Source: an uncultured Eubacterium sp.
Lineage (GTDB): Bacteria > Bacillota > Clostridia > Lachnospirales > Lachnospiraceae
Direction: 5' to 3'
DNA: 50,405 nucleotides
Assembly (NCBI GenBank): GCA_947384955.1
Contig: CANDJC010000018.1
Span: 1-50,405 of the forward strand
Shown here: positions 6,193 to 29,728 of the stretch, in pieces
Layout of the letters: each line of letters begins with the position of its first letter
How positions within the stretch are numbered: position 1 is the first letter of the stretch
Position numbers and translations under genes: made by a program
Notes under the pieces: model-generated
Databases searched by the model: none
What the model was told of the DNA's origin: nothing
Seen by the model: the letters and a program-made list of their open reading frames with translations, nothing else

Positions 6193-6195
6193 TAT

Positions 6196-7361: not shown

Positions 7362-7383
7362 TACGAACCGAAAGGAGATACTT

Positions 7384-10210: not shown

Positions 10211-10227
10211 TATTAGAAAGGATAACT

Positions 10228-11514: not shown

Positions 11515-11594
11515 ATTGCAGGCAGATTTGCACAAGAATAACGCTGTACTTATAGGGAATAATCACGAAATGGCTTTCTTCTGAATAAAAAGTA

Positions 11595-11624
11595 TTTACA
11601 TAGTCAAAAATAAACTGGTAGAAT
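11595..11624 (+). promoter_or_regulatory. Promoter of the CarD-family gene
   Basis: TTTACA (11595-11600), an 18-base spacer and TAGAAT (11619-11624), 47 bases before the start at 11672. Confidence 0.45.
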
Positions 11625-11671
11625 AAAACTGACACCAGATTTTTCATCTTTGAAGAAAGGAAGAATAGCCT

Positions 11672-12193
11672 ATGTTTCAGAAAAATGATTATGTAATTTA
11701 TGGAAGCAACGGTGTCTGCATGGTCAAAGATATCGGGCCGCTAGACATACCGGGCATACCGGCAGGACGGATTTATTATACACTTGTGCCTTATTATACA
11801 AAAGACAGTCAGATTTTCACGCCGGTTGACAGTACCAAAGTAGTGATGAGAGCTTTAATCTGCAAAGAAGCTGTCCTGCAGCTGATTGAAGAAATACCGG
11901 ATATTGAACCTTTATGGGTCATGGACGAAAAGCAGAGAGAAACCCAGTACAAAGAAACACTGCGCAAATGCGACTGCAGAGAACTGATAAGGATTATAAA
12001 AACCATTTACCAGCGCATGCAGACCAGAATTGCCGAAGGGAAAAAAGTCACAGCCTCAGATGAAAGATATTTTCAGCTCGCCGAAGAACGCCTCTACGGA
12101 GAATTTGCAATTGCACTGGGCATCGAGCGTGACCAGGTACGGGATTTTATCGCCGGAAAAGCAGGACATGCCGCACAGATGCAGACCGTTTGA
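11672..12193 (+). CDS. CarD family transcriptional regulator
   Basis: A 173-residue protein of the size usual for CarD/CdnL regulators. The N-terminal 60 residues match the CarD/TRCF RNA-polymerase-interacting domain (FQKNDYVIYGSNGVCMVKDI, then YYTLVPYYTKDSQIFTPVD). The C-terminal half is helical, as in the DNA-binding part of CarD (AEERLYGEFAIALGI near the end). Such proteins bind the RNA polymerase beta subunit and stabilise open promoter complexes. It has GAAAGGAAG ahead of the start, its own promoter and a strong terminator, so it is probably monocistronic. Confidence 0.9.
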   Translation: MFQKNDYVIYGSNGVCMVKDIGPLDIPGIPAGRIYYTLVPYYTKDSQIFTPVDSTKVVMRALICKEAVLQLIEEIPDIEPLWVMDEKQRETQYKETLRKCDCRELIRIIKTIYQRMQTRIAEGKKVTASDERYFQLAEERLYGEFAIALGIERDQVRDFIAGKAGHAAQMQTV

Positions 12194-12231
12194 AGCTTAT
12201 CTAAAGTATTATTAAATATGGCATACTGGTG

Positions 12232-12275
12232 AAAAGCCAGCCGTGTATTACTTTCCGTACACAGCTGGCTTTTTC
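12232..12275 (+). terminator. Terminator after the CarD-family gene, possibly bidirectional
   Basis: AAAAGCCAGCCGTGTA (12232-12247) pairs with TACACAGCTGGCTTTT (12258-12273, one bulged mismatch) and is followed by T residues. The A residues in front mean it can also end the minus-strand small gene at 12286-12438. Confidence 0.8.
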
Positions 12276-12285
12276 CTTTACGCTT

Positions 12286-12438
12286 CTATAACAATATGAC
12301 AGATTTGTGTTTTAATAATCTGGCACCGTTTACAATCAGCAAAACACCTGACGCAATTCCAGTGACCAGAATACAGATGCCCAGCACAAGACTGGAAACA
12401 GCAGTTGAATTAATGGATTTGTATAATTTTTCATTCAT
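12286..12438 (-). CDS. Small single-span membrane protein, 50 residues
   Basis: A minus-strand frame of 50 codons begins at 12438 with ATG AAT GAA AAA, preceded on that strand by a strong AAGGAGGG ribosome site 7 bases away. The protein has a polar N-terminus (MNEKLYKSINS), one hydrophobic span of about 25 residues (VSSLVLGICILVTGIASGVLLIV) with small residues that favour helix packing, and a basic C-terminal tail (RLLKHKS). The function is unknown. It sits alone, facing away from the DUF4317 gene and ending at the shared terminator. The good ribosome site and hydropathy argue for a real gene despite its size. Confidence 0.6.
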   Translation of the reverse strand: MNEKLYKSINSTAVSSLVLGICILVTGIASGVLLIVNGARLLKHKSVILL

Positions 12439-12532
12439 GGGATAAGCCCTCCTTATAAATTTTCCATTACTTTATTCTATCATACATTCCGAAAGCAATT
12501 CAATGAAATTCCATCTTTTTCATGAAAATGAT

Positions 12533-12561
12533 TTGCCTGGATGTGCCTGTACGTGTATAAT
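12533..12561 (+). promoter_or_regulatory. Promoter of the DUF4317 gene
   Basis: TTGCCT (12533-12538), a 17-base spacer and a perfect TATAAT (12556-12561), about 50 bases before the start. Confidence 0.55.
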
Positions 12562-12614
12562 AGATAACAGAAAATAAAAATATGTGGTGATACATACAGG
12601 CAGAGGTGAACAGA

Positions 12615-13751
12615 TTGAATAAAAAAGAAATAATGGAAATTAAAAAACGGCTGAAAAAAGATGACTGTACATTTACAAGAATGTGCGGATGTTATGTAAA
12701 CAGCGAGCACAGCCAGGTTACCCGTTTCGGAAAGACATTTTTAAATCTGGAAGAAGAAGAGCTTTTCAAATATCTGGAAATTGCCAAAAAAATACTTTCC
12801 GGCACAGTCGGAAATAACCTCCTGGAACTGGAATTTCCTCTTTCCGAAGAAGCCGCTGGCGGCAAACAGCAGTTTTTGCTCGGGCTGCGCGAAAGCAGAC
12901 TGAAAAATGAAGACCTGCTGGACCTTTTTTATCAGCTGATAATAGAAAACTACGATTACGCCGGCAACTATCTGATTCTTTTATTCCATGACGCTTATGA
13001 CGTGCCTGTCAGGACGAAAGACCATAAAAGCCTGGATGAATCAGAAGAAGTTTACGAATATCTGCTTTGTGCGCTGTGTCCGGTAACGCTTTCCAAACCC
13101 GGCCTGGGCTATCTGGAAGAATCCAATGAAATCGGCCTTCGGATGCGCGACTGGATTGTAGAAGCTCCTGATGCCGGATTTGTATTTCCTGCTTTTACAG
13201 AACGCAGTTCTGATATTCATGCCGCACTTTTTTATTCCAAAAATGCGAAAGAACCGCCAATGGAATTTATGGAGGGTGTCTTAGGATGCGACCGGAAAAT
13301 GACGGCATTTGAGCAGAAAGAAGTCTTTCGTTCCATATTGGAAGATACGCTCGGCCAGGAATGCGGTTATGAGACTGTCAAAGAAATTCATGACAAAATA
13401 CAGGAAAAAATTACAGAAAACGCCGAAATCAAAAACGGGGAAGAAGCAGAACCGATTGAACTGACCAAGGAAACCCTGAAAGATATTCTGAACACAAGCG
13501 GGGTAGATGAAGAAAAAATTACACAGTCGGAACAAATCTATGATGAAAGAGTCGGAAACGCCAGACTATATGCAGAAAATGTCGTTGACAAGCGTAAATT
13601 TGAAGTAAAAACCTACGATGTTGTTCTTCATGTAAAACCAGAAAAAGCATCCCAGATTAAATCTCAGATTATCGACGGACAAAAATGCCTGGTGATTCCA
13701 ATGGATGCAAACGAAAATGTTAACGTAAATGGAATCCATACAACTGTGTAA
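12615..13751 (+). CDS. DUF4317 domain-containing protein
   Basis: A 378-residue protein matching the DUF4317 family in length and in its opening (NKKEIMEIKKRLKKDDCTFT, then CGCYVNSEHSQV). The family is frequent in Clostridia and has no known function. I set the start at TTG 12615, with AGAGGTG at 12602-12608 at a proper distance; a GTG at 12606 in the same frame is an alternative that adds three residues. No signal peptide or membrane span is seen, so it is probably cytoplasmic. The next gene follows after 23 bases with a GGAGG site and is probably co-transcribed. Confidence 0.8.
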   Translation: MNKKEIMEIKKRLKKDDCTFTRMCGCYVNSEHSQVTRFGKTFLNLEEEELFKYLEIAKKILSGTVGNNLLELEFPLSEEAAGGKQQFLLGLRESRLKNEDLLDLFYQLIIENYDYAGNYLILLFHDAYDVPVRTKDHKSLDESEEVYEYLLCALCPVTLSKPGLGYLEESNEIGLRMRDWIVEAPDAGFVFPAFTERSSDIHAALFYSKNAKEPPMEFMEGVLGCDRKMTAFEQKEVFRSILEDTLGQECGYETVKEIHDKIQEKITENAEIKNGEEAEPIELTKETLKDILNTSGVDEEKITQSEQIYDERVGNARLYAENVVDKRKFEVKTYDVVLHVKPEKASQIKSQIIDGQKCLVIPMDANENVNVNGIHTTV

Positions 13752-13774
13752 TCTGAAAAAGGAGGGTTTCGTTC

Positions 13775-14488
13775 ATGGCTCTAATCGGAAAAAATAACCA
13801 TGAATCTGTACTGGATGAGGATGCTTCGCTGTTTCAGATTCCAGAAGAAAAGTCAGAAAAACAGAAATGGGCAGAAATGGACAAAAACCAGAAGCTGCAT
13901 TATTTTATTGACTATTACTTATTGAAATGTATTATCTGCATTGCCGCAGCTGTTACCGGAACTCTGTTTATCTGGAATATAATCAGGCCGCAGAAAGAAC
14001 AGACGCTGTTCCTTGCTGTTGTACATAATTCCCTGAACCAGGAAAATGAAGAACAGCTGGAACAGTTTCTTTCAGACCTTCTGATTACTGACTCTGAAAA
14101 ACAGGAAATCCATATCGATGATTCATTTGCATCCGGTTATGAATCCGATGCAAAGCTTTCAGCATATCTGGCTGCTCAGGAAATTGACCTTCTGATTGCA
14201 AATGAAACATATTTTCAGGAACTGGCACAGTCCGGCTGTTTTGAAGATATAAACGATGCGATGCCGCAGTTCGCCAGTCAGAATGAAGATTTATTATGCT
14301 GGATGAACAGTTCTTCAGATGACGGCAGCGAGTGCACCGGAGCTTACGGCATCGATATATCAGATTCAGAATTTCTGAAAAACAGCTGGTATTCTGATGA
14401 AAAAGCACTCATTGGAATCACTCGCAGCAGCACCCAAAAAGAAAATGCCATACTGACATTAACAGAACTATTTTCCAATAATAAATAA
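13775..14488 (+). CDS. Membrane-anchored protein of unknown function
   Basis: A 237-residue protein with a polar 50-residue N-terminus, one membrane span at about 51-70 (CIICIAAAVTGTLFIWNII) and an acidic domain after it. It starts after a GGAGG at about 13761. The C-terminal domain has features loosely like a substrate-binding fold (LAAQEIDLLIANETYFQELAQSGCFEDIN), as in many Clostridia anchored proteins of unknown function. It probably forms a unit with the DUF4317 gene. I do not recognise a named family. Confidence 0.65.
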   Translation: MALIGKNNHESVLDEDASLFQIPEEKSEKQKWAEMDKNQKLHYFIDYYLLKCIICIAAAVTGTLFIWNIIRPQKEQTLFLAVVHNSLNQENEEQLEQFLSDLLITDSEKQEIHIDDSFASGYESDAKLSAYLAAQEIDLLIANETYFQELAQSGCFEDINDAMPQFASQNEDLLCWMNSSSDDGSECTGAYGIDISDSEFLKNSWYSDEKALIGITRSSTQKENAILTLTELFSNNK

Positions 14489-14530
14489 CTGTACAGACAG
14501 GCTGTTATGCAAAAATATTCAATAAAAAAA

Positions 14531-14571
14531 CGCTGCTTTATCTGACAAGTTCTTTTTCTAATAAAGCAGCG
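14531..14571 (-). terminator. Terminator of the rep gene (minus strand)
   Basis: CGCTGCTTTAT (14531-14541) pairs perfectly with ATAAAGCAGCG (14561-14571). On the minus strand the stem is followed by seven T residues (complement of 14524-14530), a textbook terminator for the leftward rep transcript. It may also serve the rightward gene ending at 14488. Confidence 0.75.
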
Positions 14572-14592
14572 TATATTATAACTTTTATGTAT

Positions 14593-14680
14593 AGATTTAA
14601 TTTTTCATTTACTTTTCCAGGAAATTAAATCTTTATTTATCTCTTATAACTATTCGCAAAATGATAGTTTTTCGAATAGT
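14593..14680. repeat. Two short inverted repeats downstream of rep
   Basis: A perfect 11-base pair of arms, 14593-14603 with 14622-14632 (AGATTTAATTT), and an 8-base pair, 14649-14656 with 14673-14680 (ACTATTCG), lie between the rep stop codon and its terminator. Their role is unknown. Confidence 0.5.
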
Positions 14681-14772
14681 CAGTCCATGCCTTAATCATT
14701 CATGCTCAATAACTGTGAAACCGGACAATAAAACGATACTATCAGGCATTCTATTAATTTCTGCAAAACAGC

Positions 14773-15972
14773 TTACTGATTTAGCAGTTTTAATTCCAGC
14801 TGGTCATAATCATATTCTCTCTGATGAAAATTACTGAAATTATTTTTCGCATGCTTTTCTCCGCTGCCAGTCTGTAAATTCTCGTACGCATCATTCAGGC
14901 AGGAAATCATCCATCCGGTAGGATTTGCAATATTTTTCTGCTGACAAAACAGCTGATACGCATTTTCTAATTTTCCATAATCATATCCGGATTTTTCGCA
15001 AATGATTCTGACATCTTTCGTAGAAAATCCACGCAGCAGCATCTTTGCATCAATGATAAAATCCAGCTTGTCATCTTCTGACATTTCATCAGCAGATTTT
15101 AATATATCTTCAATTGTATCTACATTTCTCTCCGTTAAATCAACGATAAACTCTACACCATACACCTTAGCTCCCCTTCCCCCTTTCAGAGGGCTGAAAG
15201 AAACTTTCATATCTGTTTTTTCATTGATTTCCTTTATTGCTACATCCAGTACACATCTTTTAAACTCATACCATGTATTGAATTTCTTTTCAGGCGATTT
15301 TTCTACCGCTCTGTCAAAATTAGGCGCCTGTTTATTATTTAACTCCTTCCGAACAGCATCGAGTTCCGCATTTACCACGCCAATATTTAATTTTAACTCA
15401 GATAAATTAAATTCAATGCGGAATACCTGTGTTTTCAGTTTTTTGGGTATTCCCTTCCGGTAAAACGACTTGCTGCACAATAATTCATATAACCGAAAGC
15501 TGTATACATTCTTGAATTTAAGCATTGTTGGAAGTTCTAATATTGTAAAATTGGCTTTAAAATCTGATAGATATTCTTTAACGTCTGAATTGTAGAATAT
15601 CGTAAATACACCGTTTTCGTATCTGGCTCTGTCCACCACAGAAATATAATCAAATACACCGCCATTTTTACCCGGATCACTAAAACCTATAGTTCTAGAC
15701 GTCATATTAATCGCTACAGGTTCTAACTGTGAATAAAAAGACCCGGCATTTGCATTCATCAGTTTTCTCAATTCATTTGCTGTCATGCTGCATACAATTC
15801 TTCCATTTTTATCTTCTATATATTCTTTTTTCTGTATTTTTGCCAGTGATATCGCTGTTATTTTATTCTCAAGAAGACTTGACGAATACTTTGCGGATAT
15901 TAGATAATTAGATTTGGAATACCTGTCATCCTTATATGGCTCCAGCCGCTGTGAGCACTCTTTTTTATCCAT
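14773..15972 (-). CDS. Rep_3 (RepB) family plasmid replication initiator
   Basis: A 399-residue minus-strand protein of the Rep_3 superfamily, which binds iterons and opens theta-type plasmid origins. Visible landmarks of the tandem winged-helix fold are SNYLISAKYSSSLLENKI at the N-terminus, FTILELPTMLKFKNVYSFRLYELL in the middle, and TWYEFKRCVLDVAIKEINE followed by VSFSPLKGGRGAKVYGVEFIV. The C-terminal 110 residues extend beyond the usual domain. AGAAAGG lies 12 bases before the start. The iterons and promoter lie directly upstream. Together with parAB this is a complete-looking replication and partition set. The frame is intact, so it may be functional. Confidence 0.9.
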   Translation of the reverse strand: MDKKECSQRLEPYKDDRYSKSNYLISAKYSSSLLENKITAISLAKIQKKEYIEDKNGRIVCSMTANELRKLMNANAGSFYSQLEPVAINMTSRTIGFSDPGKNGGVFDYISVVDRARYENGVFTIFYNSDVKEYLSDFKANFTILELPTMLKFKNVYSFRLYELLCSKSFYRKGIPKKLKTQVFRIEFNLSELKLNIGVVNAELDAVRKELNNKQAPNFDRAVEKSPEKKFNTWYEFKRCVLDVAIKEINEKTDMKVSFSPLKGGRGAKVYGVEFIVDLTERNVDTIEDILKSADEMSEDDKLDFIIDAKMLLRGFSTKDVRIICEKSGYDYGKLENAYQLFCQQKNIANPTGWMISCLNDAYENLQTGSGEKHAKNNFSNFHQREYDYDQLELKLLNQ

Positions 15973-16002
15973 ATTTCAAATATACCTTTCTGCTGCTGCG
16001 CT

Positions 16003-16452
16003 CTACAATTTTACCGTTATTTGTTTCTATTATCTACAATTCCACCGCTAAAGTCAACTACAATTTCACCGTTAAATATATTTTTTACTCTTTTTCTACG
16101 ATTTGTACCGTCAAATATTATTTCTTTCTACGCATTTCTACGTTATATTTTTCAATGATATAATTCTTTATCTACATTCTATAACGCTATATTAGCTGAT
16201 TTCTACATTATATACCGCTAAATAATATAATTATTTTGTTATCTGACTGCTTTTAACGGTATATAATGTAGTCTTAAATGCGGTTCTATCTACATTCTCA
16301 ACGTTAAATAATTGAAATTCTCCGTTTGTCACTACAAATATCTCCTTCAAATCATACCTATAATATCTACATTTTATACCGTAAATGACTACAGTTAAGC
16401 TGGAAAACTGCTACTTCTTGCTCCGCAGCATTCTACAAAATTTTCCGCTAAA
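16003..16452. repeat. Iteron array (candidate replication origin)
   Basis: About a dozen degenerate repeats with consensus near CTACANTTNTACCGNTAAA. The clearest begin at 16003, 16034, 16058, 16096, 16128, 16172, 16203, 16290, 16368 and 16433; one is inverted (16252-16271) and one is weak (16332). Within each unit CTAC and the CCG core are 10-11 bases apart, one helical turn. Two TTATCTACA stretches (16030-16038, 16168-16176) differ by one base from a DnaA box. Position directly upstream of a Rep_3 gene makes this the expected origin and autoregulatory site. Confidence 0.85.
16029..16057 (-). promoter_or_regulatory. rep promoter embedded in the iterons
   Basis: On the minus strand, TTGACT (complement of 16052-16057), a 17-base spacer and GATAAT (complement of 16029-16034), 57 bases before the rep start. 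The spacer is occupied by the second iteron, so Rep bound there should repress its own transcription, as known for iteron plasmids. Confidence 0.6.
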
Positions 16453-16643
16453 ACTCCCTTTATTTGCGATATTTCGTTGAAGATTATTAAAACAAATAAA
16501 TAAGAAAATATGATGTTTAAAATAAAATTATTAAAAAAACAACATATAGATATCTGGCAGATATTGATATTTGAAAAATATCCGGTAAATATCTGATGCA
16601 TTCAAAATATTTGAAATATTCAAGTACGTAAAATAGCATATAA

Positions 16644-16818
16644 CTATGAATGAGTAAATCGGAAAATACATAAAATGATTTGACTTATTCATGACAAACC
16701 AGAGGTTTTAAAGATTAGAAGCATTTTGCATTGGTTATATTGTATATTTTAGGAATATTGTTTTGTATAACATTTACAAATGGAAAAAATATGTTTTGGT
16801 AATAATTTTAATTTTCTC
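16644..16818 (+). repeat. Left arm of a ~175-base inverted repeat
   Basis: This segment matches the reverse complement of 25725-25902 at roughly 80-85% by eye, with few gaps. Long exact runs include AAAATGATTTGACTTATTCA and GCATTTTGCATTGGTTATAT. Similarity fades quickly on both sides. The two arms enclose about 8.9 kb including parA and parB. Confidence 0.75.
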
Positions 16819-17627
16819 ATATATGGCACATAATATATTGATGGTTTAAAATTCTCATAGAATATATATGTTTTCATGGCCCTGTTCTCTTATATATCTT
16901 TTGATTACTTTTTTATTGCCTTGATATTCTACTGCTGTCACAAAATATCCGTCAGACTAGAATTTACCTCACCAGAGTTTTTCTTTACCTATGGACATTT
17001 TACAAATACTTCTATCGCTGCTGAATTTTTATTATTTATATTATTTTATTTTATTTGGCCTGTACGCCGGGACTAATTGCACTAAAAATTGTAAATGGTC
17101 TCTGTCCGCCCCTATTTGCCAAAAGTTTATCTTATATCTTTTGGATATTTCCAGATATATCACTTTTATTATAATACGGTCTTCTTCTTCATTTATTATT
17201 ATTTTCCTGTATTTAACTGGTCATATTAATGATACATTAGCATTAATACGTTATGTGACTTGTGCTTATACTCACTCGTCCATAATTTTCTCCTTCTCTT
17301 TTTCTATTGTATTGTTTCCAATACGTTACGATAAAGTTTGTTTTCGTAGCAGAACTGCTGGAAATCAAATATGGAGAGATTGAATTTCATTTAATTTAAT
17401 TAAACTATAATATTAATTTTAATTTCTGAATACAACATCATAATAACAAATTCATATAAAATTGTATTTGTAGGTAAATATATTTACTTCAATTTATAAG
17501 TTTTCAGGAATCGGTAGATTTTTAGATAAATTTAACCTATTTGTTGTATATATCTTTCACAATTCAAACTATATCTGGTTGTAAATAAAAACTTGTAAAC
17601 TGCTATATATTTATTCTATTATATTTT

Positions 17628-17833
17628 ATAGAAACTACTGTATCATTCAGAGCAAAATTAAAGTTTATCTCAGTCTGATTGCTTTATTCTATTGCTTATT
17701 AGACTGCTTTATTCTATTGCTTATTATAAACTGTAATAAATGAAAGTTCATTGATGACAACAATTTATTTTTAATAATACAAAACAGCCTGAGATAAACT
17801 TTAATTTTGCTCTAAATGATGCAGTAGTTTTTA
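17628..17833. repeat. MITE-like hairpin element with an internal duplication
   Basis: Arms 17628-17677 and 17785-17833 are imperfect inverted repeats of about 49 bases, including the exact run AGAGCAAAATTAAAGTTTAT. Between them two 25-base tandem copies (17677-17701 and 17702-17726) differ at one base. There is no open frame inside, so this resembles a miniature non-autonomous element or a large extruding hairpin. Confidence 0.65.
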
Positions 17834-19080
17834 TATAATGATATATTTTGACTTAGGAATTTAATTAAGCATTCGTATTATTTACCTATAAATAAATATA
17901 TCCCCGATTATCTATATTCTGATGACACATGAGCATAATTCTAAATTTATTCATATATATTTTTATTTTTTAGCATTTGTTTCAAAATTTTATGATTAGT
18001 CTAAAGTATGTTTATTTAAACTTGTTATATAAGATTTCACCAGTTTACAGCTTTTTTATATTTCAATGCTTTCTGTGAAAATTTGACTGCTGTAAGATTT
18101 GACAAATATATAAATATTAATAAAATAGTCTATTGCAGAGTTATGTAGTATTTGCCGTTTGCATTAACCTTTTTGAAATGCCGATAAATTATGTTCTTTC
18201 AGATTTTTCATTTACTTAGGAAATTTCAAAAAAATATATACCAACGGATAAAATGAAACTTGCGTTAATCAGTTTTCTGCCAAACAAGTTTTATAAACTG
18301 GTTTAGTTAAGATAATGCATGTGTATAGGTATTGCTCCGTATGTATTAATTTAGCGGTATCGTTCCAATAAAACAGTCTTTGTAGGAATTTACTTACTAG
18401 TTTTTACAATTTTGTACAGCAGTTATGATAGTTTTATTATATTTCAAACAGTTTGAATAACTTAGAATCCTTGATTTATTGAAATGTCATTAACTTAAGC
18501 TCTATATCAGCCAAATTATATCAGAATTATCCGCATAAACAGCAGTTTTCCAGCTTGTGAAACTTAGAATGACGACTTAAGTTAATGATATTCTGATTTA
18601 TCTGTATTATTATAAAAGGTAGCTCATATTGATATCAGCCCTAACCCTGCTCTGCTCGGTAAAATCTGGTCGCAGCAAAGCTACGGGGAATCAGATGTAT
18701 GACGGATTAAATTTATACAACTCTGTATGTGATTCTAATTATGACATGTTTCCAATTTTCTTTAGTTAATACAAAAATCAAATCATTAATCATATTCGTT
18801 AGATATTTAAAATGAAAAGACGATATATACATATGAAAAACAGATATTAACTTTATTACACAATTTAAAAAGTTTAGTTGTTAAAAAAGTAAAAAATACA
18901 AATAAAATTCTTAGCGTGATGATGATTACTCTTTTGCTTCTTAGTCTATATTCATAAAAAATTAATTTTCAGTGAAACAATTTATGTTCTAAATAAGCAA
19001 GTAAAATTATGAAAATAGGTATTCAGGAGGTGTATTTTAAATAAGATGTCAATAATTCGAGTTAATAAATAATTATCTAA

Positions 19081-19109
19081 TTGATTTTTTCTATTTCCCC
19101 TGTTATAAT
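19081..19109 (+). promoter_or_regulatory. Promoter of parA-parB
   Basis: TTGATT (19081-19086), a 17-base spacer and a perfect TATAAT (19104-19109), 36 bases before parA. Short inverted ATAAT/ATTAT arms after the -10 box could be an operator for ParA or ParB. Confidence 0.6.
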
Positions 19110-19145
19110 CATCATAATATAAAATTATAGAAATGAGGTACAAAA

Positions 19146-19922
19146 ATGGGAAGAATATTTGCATTGTGTTCTCAAAAAGGAGGTACAGCTAAAACGAGTT
19201 CTGCAATAGAAATTGCAACTTGTTTATCTGCTGAAAAGCATAGTGTACTTTTGATAGATTTAGATCAGCAGTGTGATGCAAGCAGAAATTCGGGTATTGA
19301 AAAACCGAATTATACAATTCATGATATTTTTCAACAGGAATGTAAAATAACTGATGCAATACATAAAACTGATTGGTATGATATTATTCCTGCATCACCA
19401 GCTTTATCCAAAGCAGATAAAATTTATATGGAGCGAGATGACGTTTATTTATTAAAAGATGTCTGTGAAATTCTTTTAAACAAATATGAATTTATTATTA
19501 TTGATAATCCGCCAGCAAGAAATACACTGCTTAATATGACTTATATTGCAGCTGATTATATTATCTGTCCTACTCTATCTGATGATAATTCAGTACGCGG
19601 TATTATTGCCGTGGAGCAAGATTTGAAAAAGTTAAGAGACTCTAGGAATCAGGATTCTCATGCTTATATCATAGGAATTATATTATCTATTTATGAAACA
19701 ACAAATTCTCATAAAAAGGCATTGGAAAGTTTAAAAAAGATTTCTTCTGCTCTGCCGGGCGATGTTTTTATTTCAACGGTACGAAAAACAATTAAAATGG
19801 CAGAAATTAAGTCGCTTTGTGTACCGTTACAGATATATGATAAATATAATAACGCTTCTTTAGACTACCGGAAAATCACTAAGCGAATCATAGATATATA
19901 TGAGGAGGATATTAATGGCTAG
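19146..19922 (+). CDS. parA: ParA family partition ATPase
   Basis: A 258-residue ParA/Soj-type ATPase. The deviant Walker A KGGTAKTS spans residues 11-18 with the signature lysine Lys11 and Lys16; Walker A' is seen in LLIDLDQQCDAS and Walker B in EFIIIDNPPA. No N-terminal helix-turn-helix extension is present, so this is the short type Ib-like or chromosomal Soj-like form rather than P1 ParA. ATGAGGT precedes the start. ParA moves ParB-bound replicon copies along the nucleoid. It overlaps parB by 8 bases. Codon use is more AT-rich than in the housekeeping blocks on either side. Confidence 0.92.
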   Translation: MGRIFALCSQKGGTAKTSSAIEIATCLSAEKHSVLLIDLDQQCDASRNSGIEKPNYTIHDIFQQECKITDAIHKTDWYDIIPASPALSKADKIYMERDDVYLLKDVCEILLNKYEFIIIDNPPARNTLLNMTYIAADYIICPTLSDDNSVRGIIAVEQDLKKLRDSRNQDSHAYIIGIILSIYETTNSHKKALESLKKISSALPGDVFISTVRKTIKMAEIKSLCVPLQIYDKYNNASLDYRKITKRIIDIYEEDING

Positions 19923-20883
19923 AAAAAATAAATTTATGGATCAAGAAACCGATTTTTTATCTATGTTAGATGATGAATCTACAGAAGACAATCTGACAAA
20001 AAGCATTGCCAGAGAACTAGATAAAGAGAACGAATCAGCAAATGAAATACTTACTGCTTTACCAGACGAGTTTATTCCATATGAGGACGAAAAACTTAGA
20101 TTGGATTTGCATCATGGAGAAGACAGAGAAAGGTTAAAAGAATCAATCAGATTGAATGGAATTTTCACGCCGGTTATTTGTGTAAAAAAGCAAGATAAGT
20201 TAATGATATTAAGCGGGCATAATCGTGTAGATGTAGCCAATGAATTGAATATAGAAGTTCCATATATATTGAAAAATGATTTATCAAATGAAGAAATGGA
20301 ACTTATATGCATAGATGATAATTTAATACATAGACAAAGAACGGATTATAAGCCTATGCAGCTTGCCTATTCAATAAAAGTAAAAATGGATGCGGAACGT
20401 CATCAGGGAATTGCTTTGAGTAACGGTTACTCAAAGCTGACGGGAGACAAGATAGGTGAAGAACATGGTCTCACAAGAAAAATGATAAATATCTATCTTA
20501 AACTTAATGAGCTTATAGAAGATGCCAAAAATCTGGTAGATCAGAAAAAAATTTCTATTAGAATGGGCTATGAATTAGCATTTTTAGATGCAGAGGAACA
20601 GCAAATTATTCTTAATTATTTAAACGATTTCAAAATCAATGATAAAATGATTAAATCAATTAGAAATGAAATTGCTAAAAAGGAGTTCAATTCTTTTGAT
20701 GAAAAAAAGACATTTATAGAATCACAATTATTACAGCTTCGAGTAACAGTTACTCAAAGCCGTAAACTGGATTTTAGGAAAGTAAGAAAATTTATTCCAG
20801 AAACTATAAAAGATGAAGATGCAGAAAATTATATTATTGAAGCTGTAAAGTTTTATAATGAAAATAAAGAAAAATTATATTAA
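19915..20883 (+). CDS. parB: ParB/RepB/Spo0J family partition protein
   Basis: A 322-residue protein started at ATG 19915, with GAGGAGG at 19902-19908. It has the ParB N-terminal nuclease-like/CTPase fold (LKESIRLNGIFTPVICVK), box II variant SGHNR (residues 100-104) in place of the chromosomal GERR, then NEEMELICIDDNLIHRQRTD, and a helix-turn-helix centre (TGDKIGEEHGLTRKMINIYLKL). It should bind centromere sites near its own operon. No classical Spo0J parS palindrome was found; dispersed CAGTTTACAGCTT-like motifs in the flanks are candidates. The divergence of box II is common in plasmid ParB proteins. Confidence 0.9.
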   Translation: MARKNKFMDQETDFLSMLDDESTEDNLTKSIARELDKENESANEILTALPDEFIPYEDEKLRLDLHHGEDRERLKESIRLNGIFTPVICVKKQDKLMILSGHNRVDVANELNIEVPYILKNDLSNEEMELICIDDNLIHRQRTDYKPMQLAYSIKVKMDAERHQGIALSNGYSKLTGDKIGEEHGLTRKMINIYLKLNELIEDAKNLVDQKKISIRMGYELAFLDAEEQQIILNYLNDFKINDKMIKSIRNEIAKKEFNSFDEKKTFIESQLLQLRVTVTQSRKLDFRKVRKFIPETIKDEDAENYIIEAVKFYNENKEKLY

Positions 20884-21826
20884 TCAAGACTGAAAAAGAA
20901 ATCTCCGAAATACATATTTAAAAGGTTTCTTTTTCAGATTTTTCAATATACTGATTTCTATAGAACTGATTTTTAGTTTTTCAGTTAGATTCTTATATAA
21001 GCAATCTACGACTAATCCTTGGAAATCCCATTATTTTTCGAGATAAGTGATTTACTAAATATCGTCTATTTTTAAAACATAACAGATATTTGTCTGGCAG
21101 TGTCTAGAAAAACTTAAAACTTTTAGAATCAAATCATCTGCTTAGTATGCGGACAAAAACAAACTATACAATTTTTATAAAAATCAAAGAATGGTTACAA
21201 AAGAATGTTGCATACAAAGATAGCAAGATATTATACGTAAAACACTGCAGTAATGGATTTTTCTGAATGGCAATAATAATAAGTCTGATTTAAAATAGAA
21301 GCACGAAAGCAGGATGAACTGTCTAACATATCATCCACAACAATCAGCCAGACAAAGACACGTTGTGAAGCTGTCCGTGAACTGCATTGTACAGAAAAAC
21401 TCTTATCCGTTTTACATAGTAGCAAAAATTATTATTGAGTTACACACTAAAGAAGCTGCTTCTGAATTAGGGCTTGCTCCTCGAAAATAAACCAGATAGA
21501 AATTGCGGTTTCTGGCGAAATACTGTATGAAAAATTTATATTACTTCAACTTTGTAAATGGAAATTGGAAAACTGCTGAACAGATATGAACTACACTCTT
21601 TCGTGAGCAAATACTGATGCATGACACAACAAAATGATACATTTCACATCTGCTGTATGGAAGATATTTATTTATATTTAGAAACTGACATTTAATACTG
21701 AAACACAGCTAATTTCCATGAAGTAAAATCCACTCTGTATGCTGGATAAAATAAAGGAGCGGATTGAGGCAGAGCTATAAATTTTTTATGCTGAAAAACT
21801 AAAAATGCGGAAGTAGTATAGTAAAA

Positions 21827-22190
21827 ATTTACAGTTCTTCTTTAGACCAATTCTGATTTATAATTCTTTTTTCAGAGTCAAAATTAGTAGTTCTCTTTCA
21901 AACTATTTCCTGGTTTTCAGTTCTTTTTCAGATTCAAAATTAACAGTTTTTCTTTAAACCATTGTCTTGTTTTCAGCTCTTTTTTTAGAGTTAGAGTTAA
22001 CAGTTCTTTTTAAACCATTTCTTGATTTTCAGCCCTTTTCAGAGTCAAGATCAGCAGTTCTGCTTTATATCATTTCCTGGCTTTTAGTTCTTTTTCAGAA
22101 TCATAAATTAATAATTTTGCTTTATAGCACTTCTTGGTTTTTAGTCTTTTTTTAGAATCATAAATTAGCAGTTCTGCTTTGCTGTAGAAT
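21827..22190. repeat. Degenerate ~56-base tandem repeat, about 6 copies
   Basis: Successive units begin near 21852, 21910, 21966, 22021, 22077 and 22133, each with a TGGTTTTCAGTTCTTTTTC block followed by AGAATCAAAATTA, CAGTTCT and CTTTAAACCATTTC-like stretches. Copies differ at many positions. It does not encode an open protein repeat in any single frame. Confidence 0.75.
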
Positions 22191-22328
22191 CAGAAGTATA
22201 TTTATAGAACTACTTGAAGCGATGGCACTATATTCATACATAAAACAGATAAAAAGTGATTTTGTAAAAATAATGTGCTAGATTTCAAAAGAATACTATC
22301 CCGACTATAAAAAATTTATGAGCGTCCC

Positions 22329-22471
22329 CATTTTTGAATTTGACATCATTGAAACCTGTATAGAATCAGGTTTTCTCATAAAAAGCATAATCACAATGGG
22401 TATTTATTCATAAATTTAGTAATTATGCGGCTTTGCAAATAAGAGATTGGAAAAATGGGAACCTCAAAATG
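22329..22471 (+). repeat. Diverged inverted duplicate, copy A
   Basis: About 143 bases that match the reverse complement of 26143-26286 at roughly 75-80% by eye, including CATTTTTGAATTTGACA and TTTCTCATAAAAAG. Both copies could be remains of the same coding sequence (a shared IFEFD..IE reading), but no family is recognised. Confidence 0.65.
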
Positions 22472-24845
22472 AAAAATCACTATATCTGGCAGTTTAAAAA
22501 CGCAAAGCAAGTCAGTATTTTATGAGACGCTTAAATCTTCTGCTGACTAGTGCTTGTCATAAAAGTTTGATATACATTGTAGATAAAACAAAAAAGATTG
22601 GTTAAATATTGCAGAAACTGGATTTAGCTTATTGAGTATACAACGCCTCAGCAACAGTCGCATTAGATTCCATGAAGTTTAAAATAAAACAATATCTAAA
22701 GAGAAAATTATGAAATAAACGGCAGTCTGGTGATAACTAATAATTTGCAACAGAGGATTTAATAATTAATTGAAAAAACGATATTCTAAGCCAGTTTTAC
22801 TGGATAATAAATTTTCAGCATCTCGTTTTGCAACAATTTTATATTGTCCAGGATATTAAGAAAATTCGTTAAAAAAGCTCATTGTTGACTGGCATAAATC
22901 TTTGAGAGATATGATAAAATATTCAATATATCAAGTCAAACTTTCAGTTTTTGCTATACATTCACAAATTGATTTTTAGAAAAAGGGAGATTTACCCTAG
23001 TTTACAGCTTTGGATTTTTTTAAAACCTGATAGAACGCAGCCCTCTATTATATTAAAAACTGATTGAGCATTTTTACAGTTTCGAATGATTCTACAAAAC
23101 TGATAAATATGATAACTGCCTGAATCTGCTATCCAATACTAAATCTGGTTTTCTGTACACTTGCAGACTAAACAGTATGAGAAGGTTTCATCACTATATG
23201 TGAACGGTGTCATAGCACAGTAAGCTATGATATGTTTTCCAGATTAACCAGACGTTCAATGTCATGACAACTTCGCACACGGTATTTTCCAATGACTAGA
23301 AAATCTTGCTTTTGGAGTAAAATACTTCGATGTTCCAGAGGGGCGAATGGCAGGAATATGAGAAGTATTTTATATTCTTTTCCTTATATTCGCAAATTAG
23401 TTTGTCACCCCAATTGCTGTAGTCAAGGATGATATTTTTCGAATTTTTGCTGAAGAAGAAAAGGCTGCGACTGCTATTCTTGCTTTTGGGAATTATGATA
23501 ATGGCATAGACTACACATTCTCCCATAAGCATATGAGCACTGGGTGTACGCTGATTTTCCAGTGTTCGGTTTTTGGATATTCAAGACAGAGACTTATTAG
23601 TGACAGGCGTTCCCCATATTTCTTTGAGTGACCGCATATCATTGTATGTACTGGAGGAAGGTCATACATGATAGAATCTATTTCGGCATTGCACGTGATG
23701 TCAGGATTATGCTGCTTTCAATAAGCCTTGCAACGCATTCTTTTGGATAACAGTTATCACACAGCAGAAATACTTACCTGTCCAAAGTGATTTAATCTAT
23801 AGCACAGTGTACATTTTGGCAACAGTTTCAGGTTTTGTTTTTGTTTCAGAGGCAGTAGTCGTGCAGAACGGACAGATAGCATATAAAGCCTTTCGCCAAA
23901 ACAAACAGACAGATAGTGCATGAAATTTTCCGTCAAAACAGAGAATAACAGTAGTATACTTATTATACAGTGCCCGTTTAGATAATTGATTCAGTTATGT
24001 GCCGTATGGTTAAAAAGTTTTAAGCGGAGTTAAAATTTTTCCCCTTACTTTTCTGTCTTAGTATCATTAATAGAAAGGATCAACGGCTGTGCAGCAGCCC
24101 GGCACGGTATTTAAGATTTTGAACAACGCTACATATCGTTCTATTTCCTTTATTATATTAATTGAGTTCTATTTCAATTCATTCTGTATTTTTTACCTAT
24201 TGAATTGCAAAGTTTATATATATTTGCTGTATTTCAAACAGTCTTAATTTCATTTTTTCAATTTTGCTGTAACTAAAATTTTATAGAACAAATTGACTTT
24301 ACATAAAAATGTTCAATTCTTGTCCGTTCTGAAATTGAATGTTGCATGTCAACATTATGAATGCATGTGATTAACTTATGAATCTGATAAAATATAAATC
24401 TAACAACCATTTTAATAAACAACTGCATTTTTTACAGTTCATTTATCAATTGTATAAAATCAGAAACAGGATACTTGCTTTAAAGTATCTGCTCTGATAA
24501 TTATAGCGTTATGTGCTGCAGAGTTAAAAATCTTTGAGCGAGTTCCGAATTCTCCCTTTTCACTATCTCTGAATGATATATAGACAATGATTAATTATTG
24601 CTAAAATCCACTTGTATTTTCTTCTAAGTAATATATATTACACCAATTTACAACTTTTTAGATTTTACGTATTTTATGAAAATCAGAACTATATATTGTA
24701 TTTGGTTATAACAGTACAATCTCTATATATCATGGAATCACAAATTTATAAACCGAAGATATACTATTTTCATAAATATTTTAGAGGAAAACCAAGTGGA
24801 TGCCCAGCCTGTTAACAGGGAAATAGAAAATTTGTACAGCTTTCC

Positions 24846-25690
24846 CAAAATCATAAAAACGTTAATCAAAAAAAGTATGATGCTTTGCTGCTTTATCTAG
24901 AAAGACGTTCCGCAGTGAACTTTCTGAGGCTCTCTGCATTCTACGCATGACAGTGTCTGGATATATATCTCTTTACACTGAAGGCGTTGCGGAAGCCTTC
25001 TTCATCTGTAAAAACGGGCCGCACTAAATATTTAATGAATGAGCATGGAATAAAATTTTTCCATATCATTTCCACTTGCACGCCGGAAGAAGCCGGCATG
25101 AGAATTTTTGAAAACTGGACAATTCCGCGGGCTTGCCGCCTGGTAGAGAAATGATTCCAGGCAAATTTTAGAAATGCTGAATGAGGAAGCTTTTTACAGA
25201 ATTGGACTGAGCTATACCAGGCCAGATTGTACACTTGATAAGACTGACTCTGAAAAACAGGTTGCATTCTGCCAGCAGTTTGAAGATTTGAAAAAATTCT
25301 CAGGGGGATTGATGTAATGCTTTTTGAAGATGAATGCATGATTCGTGATTACCAGGTCATCATGTAAACTTGATTCCCGGCAGGGAAGAAGGACAGCATC
25401 CTAATATATAGAGTGCATGAGGGTGTTAAACTGACCGAATTCTGGTTTATGAAATAGGCAGTGTTTAGGTGGAAGAATATAAAAATACGATGCTGAAGTA
25501 TTTCATAGTTTTTTAAAAACTGTCTTCTGGAAATACCTATACGGCATAATTGTCATGATTCTGTATAATGACAAAATACATCATACAAAGCTGCTGTAGT
25601 ATTTTCTGAAAAAACAGTGAATGCCTGGAACCTGTTTTCTTGCTGTCATACAGACCAAATCGGCAGACACCTCACTATACCTTCAGTTTT
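24846..25690 (+). pseudogene. Decayed IS630-family transposase
   Basis: Although every frame has stops, an IS630-type transposase can be followed across frames: a helix-turn-helix-like start (DALLLYLERRSAVNF, 24879 on), GLSYTRPDCTLDKTDSEKQ (25204 on), the first catalytic-Asp block LFEDECMIRDYQVIM (25320 on), HEGVKLTEFW, and the second block LYNDKIHHTKLL near 25562-25600, corresponding to the family's DNARIHHAKLL. The third acidic block is degraded. At least three frameshifts and several stops make it non-functional. A long minus-strand open frame at 24941-25339 is only its shadow. Confidence 0.75.
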
Positions 25691-25724
25691 CTATAGTTCA
25701 TATCTATTGAATTACTATACACGA

Positions 25725-25902
25725 AGAAAATTCAAAATAATTTCCAAAAAAAATATTTTTGTCGTTTGTAAATGTTATATAAAACAATATTTCTATAATA
25801 TACGATATAACCAATGCAAAATGATTTTGTTCTTTAAAACATCTGATTTGTAATGAATAAGTCAAATCATTTTGTGCATTTTTTAGATTTGCTCATTCAT
25901 AG
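25725..25902 (-). repeat. Right arm of the ~175-base inverted repeat
   Basis: Reverse-complement partner of 16644-16818 (see that entry). It starts 35 bases after the decayed IS630 transposase, so it might belong to the end of that element or of a larger composite structure. Confidence 0.75.
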
Positions 25903-26621
25903 CAGAATTACTTATATAACGAAAAGCAATGGGGTAAATCTTTAATTCTCAACAAAATTATAAACTGGTATATTTAATCAGAATACTTTTGAATAAAAAG
26001 AACATATGTTCCTTGTGATTTGTAATTTACAATTTATAAGTAGGTTCATATTTTACAGTTTCTCCAATAGGAAAAAGATAATCAGGATAATAGCTGTGGT
26101 GAAAATTATAAAGATTTTAATTTAACATTGCAACATGTAATACATTTGAGTTCTCCAATTTTTTTCAATCTTTTGTTTGTAAAGCCGGATAATCACTAAC
26201 TATATGAATAAATATCCGTTGTGGTTGTCCTTTTTATGAGAAACGCTGATTTTATGCCGGTTTCAATGGTGTCAAATTCAAAAATGCGAAAACTTAAAGT
26301 AATACAGCGGCAGATTTTAAGAGATTTTCTTATTAATATTCACCAGTTTACAAATTTTTGATTAAGTACAAGATATAGATTCAATTATCATGACCATGTA
26401 CAATATGCAGCCTGGATTTTATAAAAGAATATCAAAATCAAAAAGCTGTAAACTGTTGCATAGCAAGAAGCAGATATTAAAAAATGGTACACTATGAAGC
26501 TGCAAACTTGCAATCCATTTTTTGATATATACACAATTTGACAGCAAAAATTTTTTAAGGTATTTATGGGAAATACAGCATCAAAACGTTTGAATTATTT
26601 TTAAAAGCAGGTATTTTAAGA
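25903..26621. other. Gene-less AT-rich right edge of the island
   Basis: No credible gene. It holds copy B of the diverged duplicate (26143-26286, minus orientation) and three motifs related to CAGTTTACAGCTT (25954, 26341 and, inverted, 26441). Sequence character changes to ordinary gene-dense DNA at about 26.7 kb. Confidence 0.55.
26143..26286 (-). repeat. Diverged inverted duplicate, copy B
   Basis: Reverse-complement match to 22329-22471 at roughly 75-80% by eye. Confidence 0.65.
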
Positions 26622-26660
26622 CAATAAAAATATCCTGGCTGTGCATTGCTACAGCCGGGA
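26622..26660 (-). terminator. Terminator of the XRE regulator gene
   Basis: TCCTGGCTGT (26633-26642) pairs with ACAGCCGGGA (26651-26660, one G-T). On the minus strand it is followed by ATATTTTTATT. It ends the leftward transcript of the regulator at 26755-27108. Confidence 0.7.
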
Positions 26661-26754
26661 CATTTTCATTTTTGCGGTAAGAACGAAACAAAATAACATG
26701 TTTTTCAGCGTGATGTTATGTACATTTTAGATATACAGTATACATCAGTCTGGC

Positions 26755-27108
26755 TTAAAGGTTTTCTTCACTTTCCTGAACAGACGTAATTTTTAATAAT
26801 CCCTGCATATAAGCGTTTACAAGTTTCTTATCGCTGCGGGGAAGACGGTGGAAATCTGCAAGCAGCTGCTGGTCAGAAACCGTCAGCTGTTTTGGAAGGG
26901 TTCCATTTTCGTCAAAAAATTCAGACAGAGTAATGCCCAGGCCCTCGCATATCCGTATAAGTGTAGAAACAGACGGCACGTTATTGCGGTGAAAGGTATT
27001 GCTCAAGGTAGAATAGCTGATTTCAGATTCTTTTGCCAGTCGGTAAAGTGTCCAGTTACGTTCTTCGCAAAGCTGTGTGACTCTTTTTAAAACAGATTCT
27101 TCTCTCAT
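26755..27108 (-). CDS. XRE-family helix-turn-helix regulator
   Basis: A 117-residue protein with an N-terminal Cro/C1-type domain (VTQLCEERNWTLYRLAKESEISYSTLSNTF, then VPSVSTLIRICEGLGITLSEFF at about residues 8-65) and a helical tail (LLADFHRLPRSDKKLVNAYMQGLL) typical of SinR-like or housekeeping XRE proteins in Clostridia. It is read divergently from the aminopeptidase P gene, and its own promoter and a palindrome lie in the shared 298-base gap, so it may control itself and its neighbour. It stands at the right boundary of the plasmid-like island, but its composition is that of the chromosomal blocks. Confidence 0.88.
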   Translation of the reverse strand: MREESVLKRVTQLCEERNWTLYRLAKESEISYSTLSNTFHRNNVPSVSTLIRICEGLGITLSEFFDENGTLPKQLTVSDQQLLADFHRLPRSDKKLVNAYMQGLLKITSVQESEENL

Positions 27109-27134
27109 TGTATAACTCCTGTCTCCTCATATGT

Positions 27135-27163
27135 ATTATATAATCTATTTTAGTAAATGACAA
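27135..27163 (-). promoter_or_regulatory. Promoter of the XRE regulator
   Basis: On the minus strand, TTGTCA (complement of 27158-27163), a 17-base spacer and TATAAT (complement of 27135-27140), 27 bases before the start at 27108. Confidence 0.6.
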
Positions 27164-27188
27164 AAAATCGCAAAAGATAGTAATAAGA

Positions 27189-27215
27189 GATATATAAGTA
27201 TAGCGCATATATATC
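27189..27215. promoter_or_regulatory. Palindrome between the divergent genes, candidate operator
   Basis: GATATATA (27189-27196) and TATATATC (27208-27215) are 8-base inverted arms around 11 bases, between the two divergent promoters. An operator of the XRE protein is possible. Confidence 0.35.
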
Positions 27216-27266
27216 ATAGTGGCGAGATGTAAATTACAGATATAACAGCAAAGAGGGAAATAGAGA

Positions 27267-27295
27267 TTGAAAATTCCTGATGATGCATATATAAT
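27267..27295 (+). promoter_or_regulatory. Promoter of the aminopeptidase P gene
   Basis: TTGAAA (27267-27272), a 17-base spacer and TATAAT (27290-27295), leaving a leader of roughly 105 bases before 27407. Confidence 0.6.
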
Positions 27296-27406
27296 AGAAA
27301 CAGAAAATATCAGTCTGTTTTTATAAATATTTGTTTAGTGACAAGTCAGACAGTATAAAAACCGATTGTTTCTTATATCAGATATCAGGCAGAAAGGTAC
27401 AAAAAA

Positions 27407-29251: not shown

Positions 29252-29728
29252 ATGTGTGCAAGTTATCATGAGAATTTCTGTTTATAATTTTTAGGCTTTT
29301 TTTAGATTGTGTTCACAGATTAGTCACATGAAATGAGTACAATAAAAATGTATTAGCTGACAAGCTGATATAATTTTTCATAACTCAAGCCGCATGAAGT
29401 AAGATTCATGCGGCACTCCCCTATTCAGTGAGCCGGAAGTATCTGTCTGATACTTTGGGACGGTTTATATTCATATCTGTTTTAGACAGTTTCTGTTTAT
29501 ATTCCAAAAGCAATGTGGTGGCAGATTATCTGCTAAATAACGGGTGATACAGCAGCGGATAATCTGTGAAAGTGTCCGGCAGAAGAAAAGATGGTAACAG
29601 GTCAGCCTGTCTGAACTGTTACAGAAGATGTCTTTATGGCTGCACGCTGTCGAAAGAAAGAATTGCAATTTATCCGCAAAATAGTATAATGTGATAGAAG
29701 AAGCATGCACAAAACCAGAAAGGATAAA
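29252..29728 (+). ncRNA. Highly structured intergenic region, candidate unknown RNA or leader
   Basis: This 477-base gap encodes no credible protein but holds consecutive hairpins: 29389-29398 with 29405-29414 (GCCGCATGAA), about 29433-29438 with 29444-29449 (AGTATC), 29521-29529 with 29558-29566 (CAGATTATC), and 29592-29603 with 29609-29620 (GTAACAGGTCAG, one mismatch). A TATAAT lies at 29369-29374 but without a good -35 box. It could be an independent RNA or the leader of gltX. I see no T-box sequence and no riboswitch class that I know. Confidence 0.35.

What the first reader, a model, noticed from the sequence alone, without database searches (positions are those of the whole stretch)
14489..27400. 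Plasmid-type replication and partition module at an apparent G/C skew switch: candidate working origin of a chromid or secondary chromosome
Seen: an intact Rep_3 gene, iterons, and parA-parB in a 12-kb AT-rich island between blocks of housekeeping-type genes. Hand counts on sampled 60-base lines gave C above or about equal to G on the plus strand to the left (for example C19/G12 at 10801, C22/G15 at 10861, C19/G12 at 7501; a few lines in 12.8-13.2 kb go the other way) and G above C to the right (G22/C7 at 33241, G19/C9 at 31981, G19/C11 at 45601). Known: minus-to-plus skew marks origins. Inference: the island may be a long-used origin rather than a recent inert insertion. Oddly, the left-block genes would then be head-on to replication.
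Basis: partly seen in the sequence, partly recalled or inferred. Interest (0 to 1): 0.75.

Follow-up and report, generated by a model that had tools for sequence, protein, structure and literature searches.

The report
Tiny second chromosome with swapped origin
A gut bacterium keeps what appears to be its only copy of some core genes, including the enzyme that loads glutamate onto tRNA, on a 57-kb DNA circle also found in related species, and in this species the circle's replication start appears to have been replaced in place by that of a different plasmid type.

Summary
The finding holds and grows. The window is a 50,405-bp contig; contig C205 (6,610 bp) of the same draft overlaps it by exactly 55 bp at both ends, closing a 56,905-bp circle. 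The same gene order, circularly permuted, fills contigs of 57.0, 57.5 and 63.1 kb in three congeners (not themselves closed) and a 65.4-kb circle in Eubacterium plexicaudatum ASF492; five more of 12 congeners show pieces. The circle carries the only glutamyl-tRNA synthetase found in the genome (the other hit is GlnRS) and the only AroB above cut-off. GC skew is about 0 left and +0.18 right of the island, changing again near a tyrosine recombinase opposite. A 2020 paper.9 kb the smallest chromid. But the cassette is not ancestral: seven congeners carry a different ParAB there, five a different Rep_3; the window's rep-iterons-parAB matches a 229-kb E. plexicaudatum plasmid (85/79/82% aa), an apparent in-place replacement. 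Essentiality and copy number are untested.

The parts
1..14488 (+). Left arm of the circle: lgt (3' part, 1-363), transglutaminase-like, DUF4358, MBOAT, DHHW, MCP, LRR_5, VWA, AAA, larC, CarD-like, DUF4317, 237-aa gene; all + strand, skew about 0
   Evidence: Pfam/NCBIfam; skew
14773..15972 (-). Rep_3 initiator of the replacement cassette
   Evidence: PF01051, PF21205; 85% over residues 12-359 of 399 to Rep on E. plexicaudatum C4; 80-81% to three IMG/VR loci
16003..16382 (-). Iteron array, 8 direct copies (about RCGKTNNANAWNGTAG), proposed origin
19146..19922 (+). ParA
   Evidence: PF13614; 79% to C4 of E. plexicaudatum, about 26% to the congeners' ParA
19900..20883 (+). ParB-like centromere-binding protein
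   Evidence: 82% to C4
21820..22180 (.). 56-nt tandem repeat array in the part of the island without long frames (candidate centromere or spacer, untested)
24577..25659 (.). Decayed stretch also present in the ancestral island of G002 (78% over 853 nt; looks like a transposase remnant, by recall)
26755..27108 (-). HTH regulator at the right edge of the island; 85% copy on contig C218
27407..48245 (+). Right arm: Xaa-Pro peptidase, gltX, dus, PTS EIIC, CDF, HD, hydE, ttcA-like, acylphosphatase, NIR/SIR, LytTR, NAPRT, Big_2, PPK2, aroB (47124-48245); skew +0.25 falling towards 0
   Evidence: skew
29705..31384 (+). Glutamyl-tRNA synthetase, the only one found in this genome
   Evidence: TIGR00464 325.6 bits, cut-off 289.95; PF00749 search of 13 genus genomes; the other hit is GlnRS
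48515..49162 (-). Short tyrosine recombinase (215 aa), 85-89% identical in five congeners, near the second skew change; candidate dimer-resolution or terminus recombinase
   Evidence: PF00589
49224..49285 (.). Conserved non-coding block before the recombinase gene, limits approximate (candidate target site or promoter)
   Evidence: Alignment of six species, clear in five
49360..50405 (+). Sugar-nucleotidyltransferase gene (a HAD part and the name HddA by recall), inserted between the recombinase and the transporter gene in this species; runs on into contig C205
   Evidence: PF00483

Best explanation
The island is the origin and partition region of a 56,905-bp circular chromid, of which the window is 89%. 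A plasmid-type initiator (Rep_3) binds the iterons beside its gene and loads the host replisome. Forks leave in both directions, one co-directional with the right-arm genes and one head-on to the left-arm genes, and meet roughly opposite, near a tyrosine recombinase that may resolve circle dimers; ParAB segregates copies. The body of the circle is inherited vertically among congeners, while the rep-iteron-parAB cassette of this species has replaced a different Rep_3-ParAB cassette in the same interval, probably by fusion with a plasmid of the E. plexicaudatum C4 type followed by deletion of the plasmid body and the old cassette. Shown: circle closure by contig overlaps, synteny, core genes found in single copy, skew pattern, iterons, likeness of the cassette to plasmid cassettes. 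Inferred: bidirectional firing, Rep-iteron binding, direction and route of the swap, role of the recombinase, essentiality.
For: Closure: the reverse complement of C205 overlaps the window by exactly 55 bp at both ends; the left-end 55-mer occurs in the genome twice, at those contig ends; C205 carries the genes that lie between recombinase and lgt in congeners, in order. Separate replicon: E. plexicaudatum C6 (77,782 bp) repeats its first 12.4 kb at its end at 97-99% identity, so a circle of about 65.4 kb; contigs of three other congeners are permutations of the same order. Core genes: GluRS with this gene block and nowhere else in 8 of 13 genus genomes; AroB above cut-off in 8 of 13, each with this block; a 67% GltX relative has other neighbours in a Coprococcus MAG. 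Origin: the skew profile repeats in five species. Swap: Rep 85%, ParA 79%, ParB 82% to plasmid C4 but about 26% or no match to the congeners' cassette; the congeners' cassette was not found in G000 nor in window plus C205.
Against: No read depth or laboratory data. The overlaps are assembly-graph overlaps and only one was checked genome-wide. The contigs of G002, G003 and G005 show no end overlap, so their closure rests on permutation. GC is below the chromosome: body 42.3%, whole circle 39.7%, sampled contigs 44.7 +/- 2.3%; in E. plexicaudatum the body is 37.2% against 43.5 +/- 2.4%. E. plexicaudatum has a 229-kb plasmid, larger than its 65-kb circle, against the usual size order. Four of 13 genus genomes show no GluRS, and G009 has a different one on another contig. 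The skew minimum is at the island's right edge, not at the iterons. The island's right half holds a decayed stretch shared with one congener's island. No parS was identified. In G009 the skew is plus in 13 of 14 windows.
Confidence: 0.88

Rival explanations
1. The island is a recently integrated plasmid in an ordinary chromosome, and the flanks are chromosomal.
For: Plasmid-like island (30.5% GC, delta* 77.8) in a body with a chromosome-like signature (delta* 28.0; 20 chromosome pieces average 27.2, maximum 48.0); the draft is fragmented (271 contigs).
Against: Circle closure, permuted contigs of about 57-63 kb in congeners, a contig with 12.4-kb end overlap in ASF492, and a different rep-par cassette in the same interval in congeners.
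Confidence: 0.04
2. An ordinary accessory plasmid that picked up a block of housekeeping genes and is not required by the host.
For: Plasmid-type replication; GltX and NAPRT relatives do occur on plasmid records; G009 has a GluRS on another contig; GC below the chromosome.
Against: Same gene order in five species, with a few genes lost or gained, at 44-89% protein identity; no other GluRS and no other AroB above cut-off in this genome; no second Lgt in the listed part.
Confidence: 0.06
3. The window cassette is the ancestral one and the congeners were replaced.
For: E. plexicaudatum and G010 hold relatives of the window cassette on other contigs.
Against: The other ParAB lies with this gene block in all seven congeners for which I fetched contigs reaching into the interval (Rep found in five), and the other Rep stands next to DUF4317 in one genome of another genus, G222.
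Confidence: 0.05

Closest known systems
Chromids of Butyrivibrio and Pseudobutyrivibrio (BhuII 91,776 bp; PxyII 88,942 bp; pINBov266 266 kb)
   Same: Plasmid-type replication, genes said to be present only there; in pINBov266 repA and parB sit at the skew switch (passages of PMC5716241, PMC7523725, PMC6249431). The same family by recall. Rep relatives of 28-40% lie on Butyrivibrio megaplasmids.
   Different: Here 57-65 kb, conserved in order across five species, with the only GluRS found, and with an exchanged origin cassette. Whether those chromids share the gene block was not tested; I did not search for their sequences by name.
Large secondary replicons with gltX: Lachnospira eligens NC_012780 (627 kb), Ruminococcus albus 7 NC_014825 (353 kb), Monoglobus NZ_OY725739 (368 kb)
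   Same: A glutamyl-tRNA synthetase gene on a record filed as plasmid.
   Different: Enzyme 45-46% identical, replicon 5-11 times larger; I did not test whether it is their only copy.
Small replicons with host genes: Leptospira biflexa 74-kb replicon (abstract start), a chromid of Dinoroseobacter shibae of 72 or 86 kb (passage of PMC4373377), Borrelia cp26 (recalled)
   Same: Small circles that carry host functions.
   Different: Other bacteria; gene content and replication type not compared. The D. shibae one could be cured according to the figure legend seen.
229-kb plasmid C4 of E. plexicaudatum and IMG/VR contigs L269-L272
   Same: Same rep-parAB type (Rep 75-85%; ParA 79-83% and ParB 67-82% where reached); iterons shown for C4.
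   Different: About 30-32% GC, without the chromid genes (whole of C4; 10.7-21.2-kb stretches of the IMG/VR contigs). The likely donor type, not the chromid.

Membership tests
Chromid (Harrison et al. 2010 criteria as quoted in PMC5716241 and PMC7523725) | Plasmid-type replication and partition | tested here: met
   Rep_3, iterons, ParAB
Chromid (Harrison et al. 2010 criteria as quoted in PMC5716241 and PMC7523725) | Separate replicon | tested here: met
   Two 55-bp overlaps with C205; contig with 12.4-kb end overlap in ASF492
Chromid (Harrison et al. 2010 criteria as quoted in PMC5716241 and PMC7523725) | Composition similar to the chromosome | tested here: inconclusive
   Dinucleotide signature of the body within the chromosomal range in both species; GC 2.3 points lower for the body, 5 for the whole circle, 6 for the body in ASF492
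Chromid (Harrison et al. 2010 criteria as quoted in PMC5716241 and PMC7523725) | Core genes that are chromosomal in other species | tested here: met
   gltX and aroB found once above cut-off, lgt once in the listed part; a gltX relative in another, chromosome-like neighbourhood in a Coprococcus MAG (neighbour functions by recall)
Chromid (Harrison et al. 2010 criteria as quoted in PMC5716241 and PMC7523725) | Usually larger than the plasmids present | tested here: not met
   ASF492: 229-kb plasmid against a 65-kb circle. The criterion is worded 'usually', so I keep the working name mini-chromid
Chromid (Harrison et al. 2010 criteria as quoted in PMC5716241 and PMC7523725) | Genes essential for growth, indispensable | not testable with these tools
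   No other GluRS found, but no curing experiment
Rep_3 iteron-type replicon | Initiator with both Rep_3 winged-helix domains | tested here: met
   PF01051 and PF21205 above cut-off
Rep_3 iteron-type replicon | Direct repeats beside rep | tested here: met
   8 copies at 16003-16382
ParABS partition | ParA ATPase, ParB and parS | tested here: inconclusive

The most novel reading that the evidence does not exclude
A genus of gut bacteria runs a 57-65-kb chromid, smaller than the smallest one claimed in the papers I found, that holds its only glutamyl-tRNA synthetase, and one species has exchanged the whole initiator-origin-partition cassette of this replicon for that of a plasmid type of the genus without moving the origin's place, so the gene body outlives its replication engine.
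Probability: 0.7. Interest if true: 0.82.

Novelty: new variant of a known kind. Interest (0 to 1): 0.72.

Why it matters
Work in E. coli reports that gaining an essential gene can destabilise a plasmid and that plasmids rarely carry such genes (abstract and passages of PMC8297927). Here a replicon of 57-65 kb carries the apparent sole GluRS in several species and seems to have survived an exchange of its origin. It is present in ASF492, a member of a standard gnotobiotic mouse community whose genome paper reports no evidence of plasmids (passage of PMC9600240), so essentiality, copy number and origin exchange can be tested in a cultured strain. It may also show how genome bins lose a core gene: three congener bins (G001, G006, G008) show neither the two genes used to trace the replicon nor a GluRS.

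Tried and rejected
Integrated plasmid in a chromosome: rejected after the circle closed. rRNA operon in the recombinase-lgt gap, as on some secondary replicons: no Rfam match in six loci covering G002:C3 and parts of G004:C6 and G005:C28. AroB copies on other contigs as true duplicates: 28-33% identical in the four contigs tested (G000:C54, G007:C66, G007:C109, G012:C120), below the TIGR01357 cut-off. The island as a clean insertion: another cassette occupies the interval in congeners. Automatic repeat finding did not separate iterons from shuffled sequence; only the motif written after reading did. My pattern for the congeners' iterons was poor (6, 3 and 1 copies) and I draw nothing from it. 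Canonical parS: none. Viral contigs with GltX: five relatives of 29-35%. Congeners' Rep in the plasmid collection: no record with 80% coverage, identities of 22-31% among the 12 of 177 listed. IMG/VR contigs with the window-type Rep: of nine L271 proteins scanned against PHROGs three had no match, four matched families of unknown function, one a tail-fibre family weakly, one a dUTPase; Pfam on five of them gave a thermolysin-type protease and a Uma2 domain, so plasmid or phage-plasmid stays open. Print: searches, seen as listings plus the passages cited; no description of this replicon or of an exchanged chromid origin in what I saw.
Full report
What was checked. Between ParB and the HTH gene, from 20.9 to 26.7 kb, only one open frame reaches 80 codons (132 codons), and it has no Pfam match. 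The skew step is real but runs from zero to plus: mean +0.017 over 1-14 kb, +0.175 over 28-46 kb (my averages). Because 29 of the 30 flanking genes that I placed are on the + strand, coding strand cannot produce the step; it shows in third codon positions and not significantly in the other two.

The circle. The window is contig C18 of a 5.06-Mb draft of 271 contigs. Searching that genome with the recombinase-to-lgt stretch of a congener found contig C205, 6,610 bp. Its reverse complement overlaps the window's end by exactly 55 bp and the window's start by exactly 55 bp; the left-end 55-mer occurs in the genome at those two contig ends only (the right end was not searched genome-wide). The sum is 56,905 bp. 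C205 carries the end of the nucleotidyltransferase gene, then a transporter, a short-chain dehydrogenase, a polysaccharide deacetylase, a lipoprotein (these four names by recall) and the start of lgt, the congeners' order apart from the inserted nucleotidyltransferase.

The same replicon elsewhere. Of the 12 other genomes of the genus searched, four (G002, G003, G004, G005) have the same gene order on one contig each, cut at different points of the circle, with a few differences (for example the PTS gene is missing from three, and the 237-aa gene was found in G003 only); five more (G007, G009, G010, G011, G012) have pieces. Three (G001, G006, G008) show neither the GltX nor the DUF4317 of this replicon. 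Its contig C6 begins and ends with the same 12.4 kb at 97-99% identity, so it is a circle of about 65.4 kb, and C4 likewise closes to about 229 kb. The other congener contigs show no end overlap. The ASF genome paper says the chromosome of ASF492 is contained within six contigs and that no evidence of plasmids was found (passage, PMC9600240).

Core genes. PF00749 finds two proteins in this genome, one on the window and one on C109. The first is a bacterial GluRS (325.6 bits, cut-off 289.95); the second is GlnRS by two models, as is the one on the E. plexicaudatum chromosome; in the other genomes I take the second hit as GlnRS from its score. GluRS goes with this gene block and was found nowhere else in 8 of 13 genomes; G009 has a different one (260 bits, just below the cut-off) on another contig; none was found in 4 of 13 (G001, G006, G007, G008), which I read as bins that lack all or part of this replicon, an inference. 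AroB above its cut-off was found in 8 of 13, with this gene block in all eight. Lgt is listed once in each of nine genomes (G000, G002, G003, G004, G005, G007, G009, G010, G011), but that list was cut at its weak end. In a Coprococcus MAG the gltX relative (67%) has other, chromosome-like neighbours (functions by recall).

Skew and likely mechanism. Rotated to a common start, G002, G003, G004, G005 and the window show one profile: about +0.25 right of the island, falling to about 0 near the recombinase, near 0 from there to the island. On the closed 56.9-kb circle the detrended cumulative skew has its minimum at 27,175 and its maximum at 46,038, with an amplitude beyond all 10,000 block permutations. 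The simplest reading is bidirectional replication from the island with forks meeting near 46-49 kb, the left half being transcribed against the fork. The recombinase there is related to Xer and integrase models but below the NCBIfam cut-offs. It is 85-89% identical in five congeners, as well conserved as NAPRT and PPK2, and has a conserved non-coding block in front of it. That it resolves dimers is inference. G009's 40.5-kb contig lacks the recombinase and has plus skew in 13 of 14 windows, which would fit one-way replication or a chromosomal place; that contig is not closed and the congeners' Rep was not found on it.

The exchanged origin. In congeners the interval between DUF4317 and the Xaa-Pro peptidase holds another cassette: a Rep_3 protein of 428 aa in G002 and another ParAB. 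That ParAB was found in all seven congeners for which I fetched contigs reaching into the interval (G002, G003, G004, G005, G009, G010, G011) and its Rep in five of them (not G009 and G010), and that Rep also stands next to DUF4317 in one genome of another genus, G222. The window's cassette is about 26% identical to it where it matches at all, and the congeners' cassette was not found in the window's genome. Instead the window's Rep (residues 12-359), ParA and ParB are 85, 79 and 82% identical to those on the 229-kb plasmid C4 of E. plexicaudatum, which has 7 copies of the same iteron motif, and 80-81, 79-83 and 67-79% to IMG/VR contigs L269-L271 of 89-126 kb. E. plexicaudatum thus carries both cassettes, on separate circles. 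An in-place swap through a transient fusion would explain this; the route is inference. The right half of the island holds a decayed stretch 78% identical to part of G002's island, so old and new material may be mixed there.

Against the reading. The GC of the circle is below that of sampled contigs (20 of 271 contigs, first 20 kb each), and in E. plexicaudatum the body is six points below 20 samples of C1; the dinucleotide signature of the body is within the chromosomal range in both. The circle of E. plexicaudatum is smaller than a plasmid of the same strain. There are no read-depth data, no parS, and no proof of essentiality. That C18 belongs to this bin rests on shared repeat families (the island has 83 matches in the genome, six of them on C18 itself), the C205 joins and the missing GluRS elsewhere; a close congener in the same sample is not excluded.

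Comparison with print. The closest known are the Butyrivibrio and Pseudobutyrivibrio chromids; a 2020 paper calls the 88,942-bp PxyII the smallest chromid reported (passage, PMC7523725). Smaller replicons with host genes are in print: a 74-kb one in Leptospira biflexa (abstract start) and a Dinoroseobacter chromid of 72 or 86 kb (passage, PMC4373377). GltX on larger secondary replicons occurs in Lachnospira eligens and Ruminococcus albus. Uni- and bidirectional chromids told apart by skew, with dif opposite the origin in the bidirectional ones, are described for Pseudoalteromonas (passages, PMC7858055). I found no description of this replicon or of an exchanged chromid origin in nine searches of an open-licence library. 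The GTDB name Eubacterium_J and the placement in Lachnospiraceae are recalled; NCBI places the species in Eubacteriaceae.

Noticed in passing
L027-L038 (E. plexicaudatum C4) and L072-L075 (C6): Both contigs repeat their ends (9.3 and 12.4 kb), so a member of a standard mouse community described as without evidence of plasmids has at least two extra circles.
   Followed up: partly
window 16644-16817 with 25725-25902; 22329-22468 with 26145-26286: Inverted pairs of 140-180-nt repeats inside the island, whose families recur on many other contigs of this genome.
   Followed up: no
window 49360-50405 and contig C205 (L224): A nucleotidyltransferase gene inserted just beyond the conserved block before the recombinase gene; in G003, G005 and G007 its relatives (73-75%) lie on other contigs.
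   Followed up: partly
L088-L090 (G009:C31): A 40.5-kb version without the recombinase, GltX and the congeners' Rep, with plus skew in 13 of 14 windows; a 45% GluRS relative lies on another contig.
   Followed up: partly
window 14776-14830 (Rep C-terminus) and L066:4355-5641: Two otherwise dissimilar Rep_3 proteins share a C-terminal motif, FHQR(E/D)YDYD(Q/E)LE..LLNQ; weak hits in other genera rest on the same end. A docking peptide for a host protein is possible.
   Followed up: no
L269-L271 (IMG/VR): Contigs filed as viral carry the same rep-parAB cassette (L272 has part of the Rep); plasmid or phage-plasmid not settled.
   Followed up: partly
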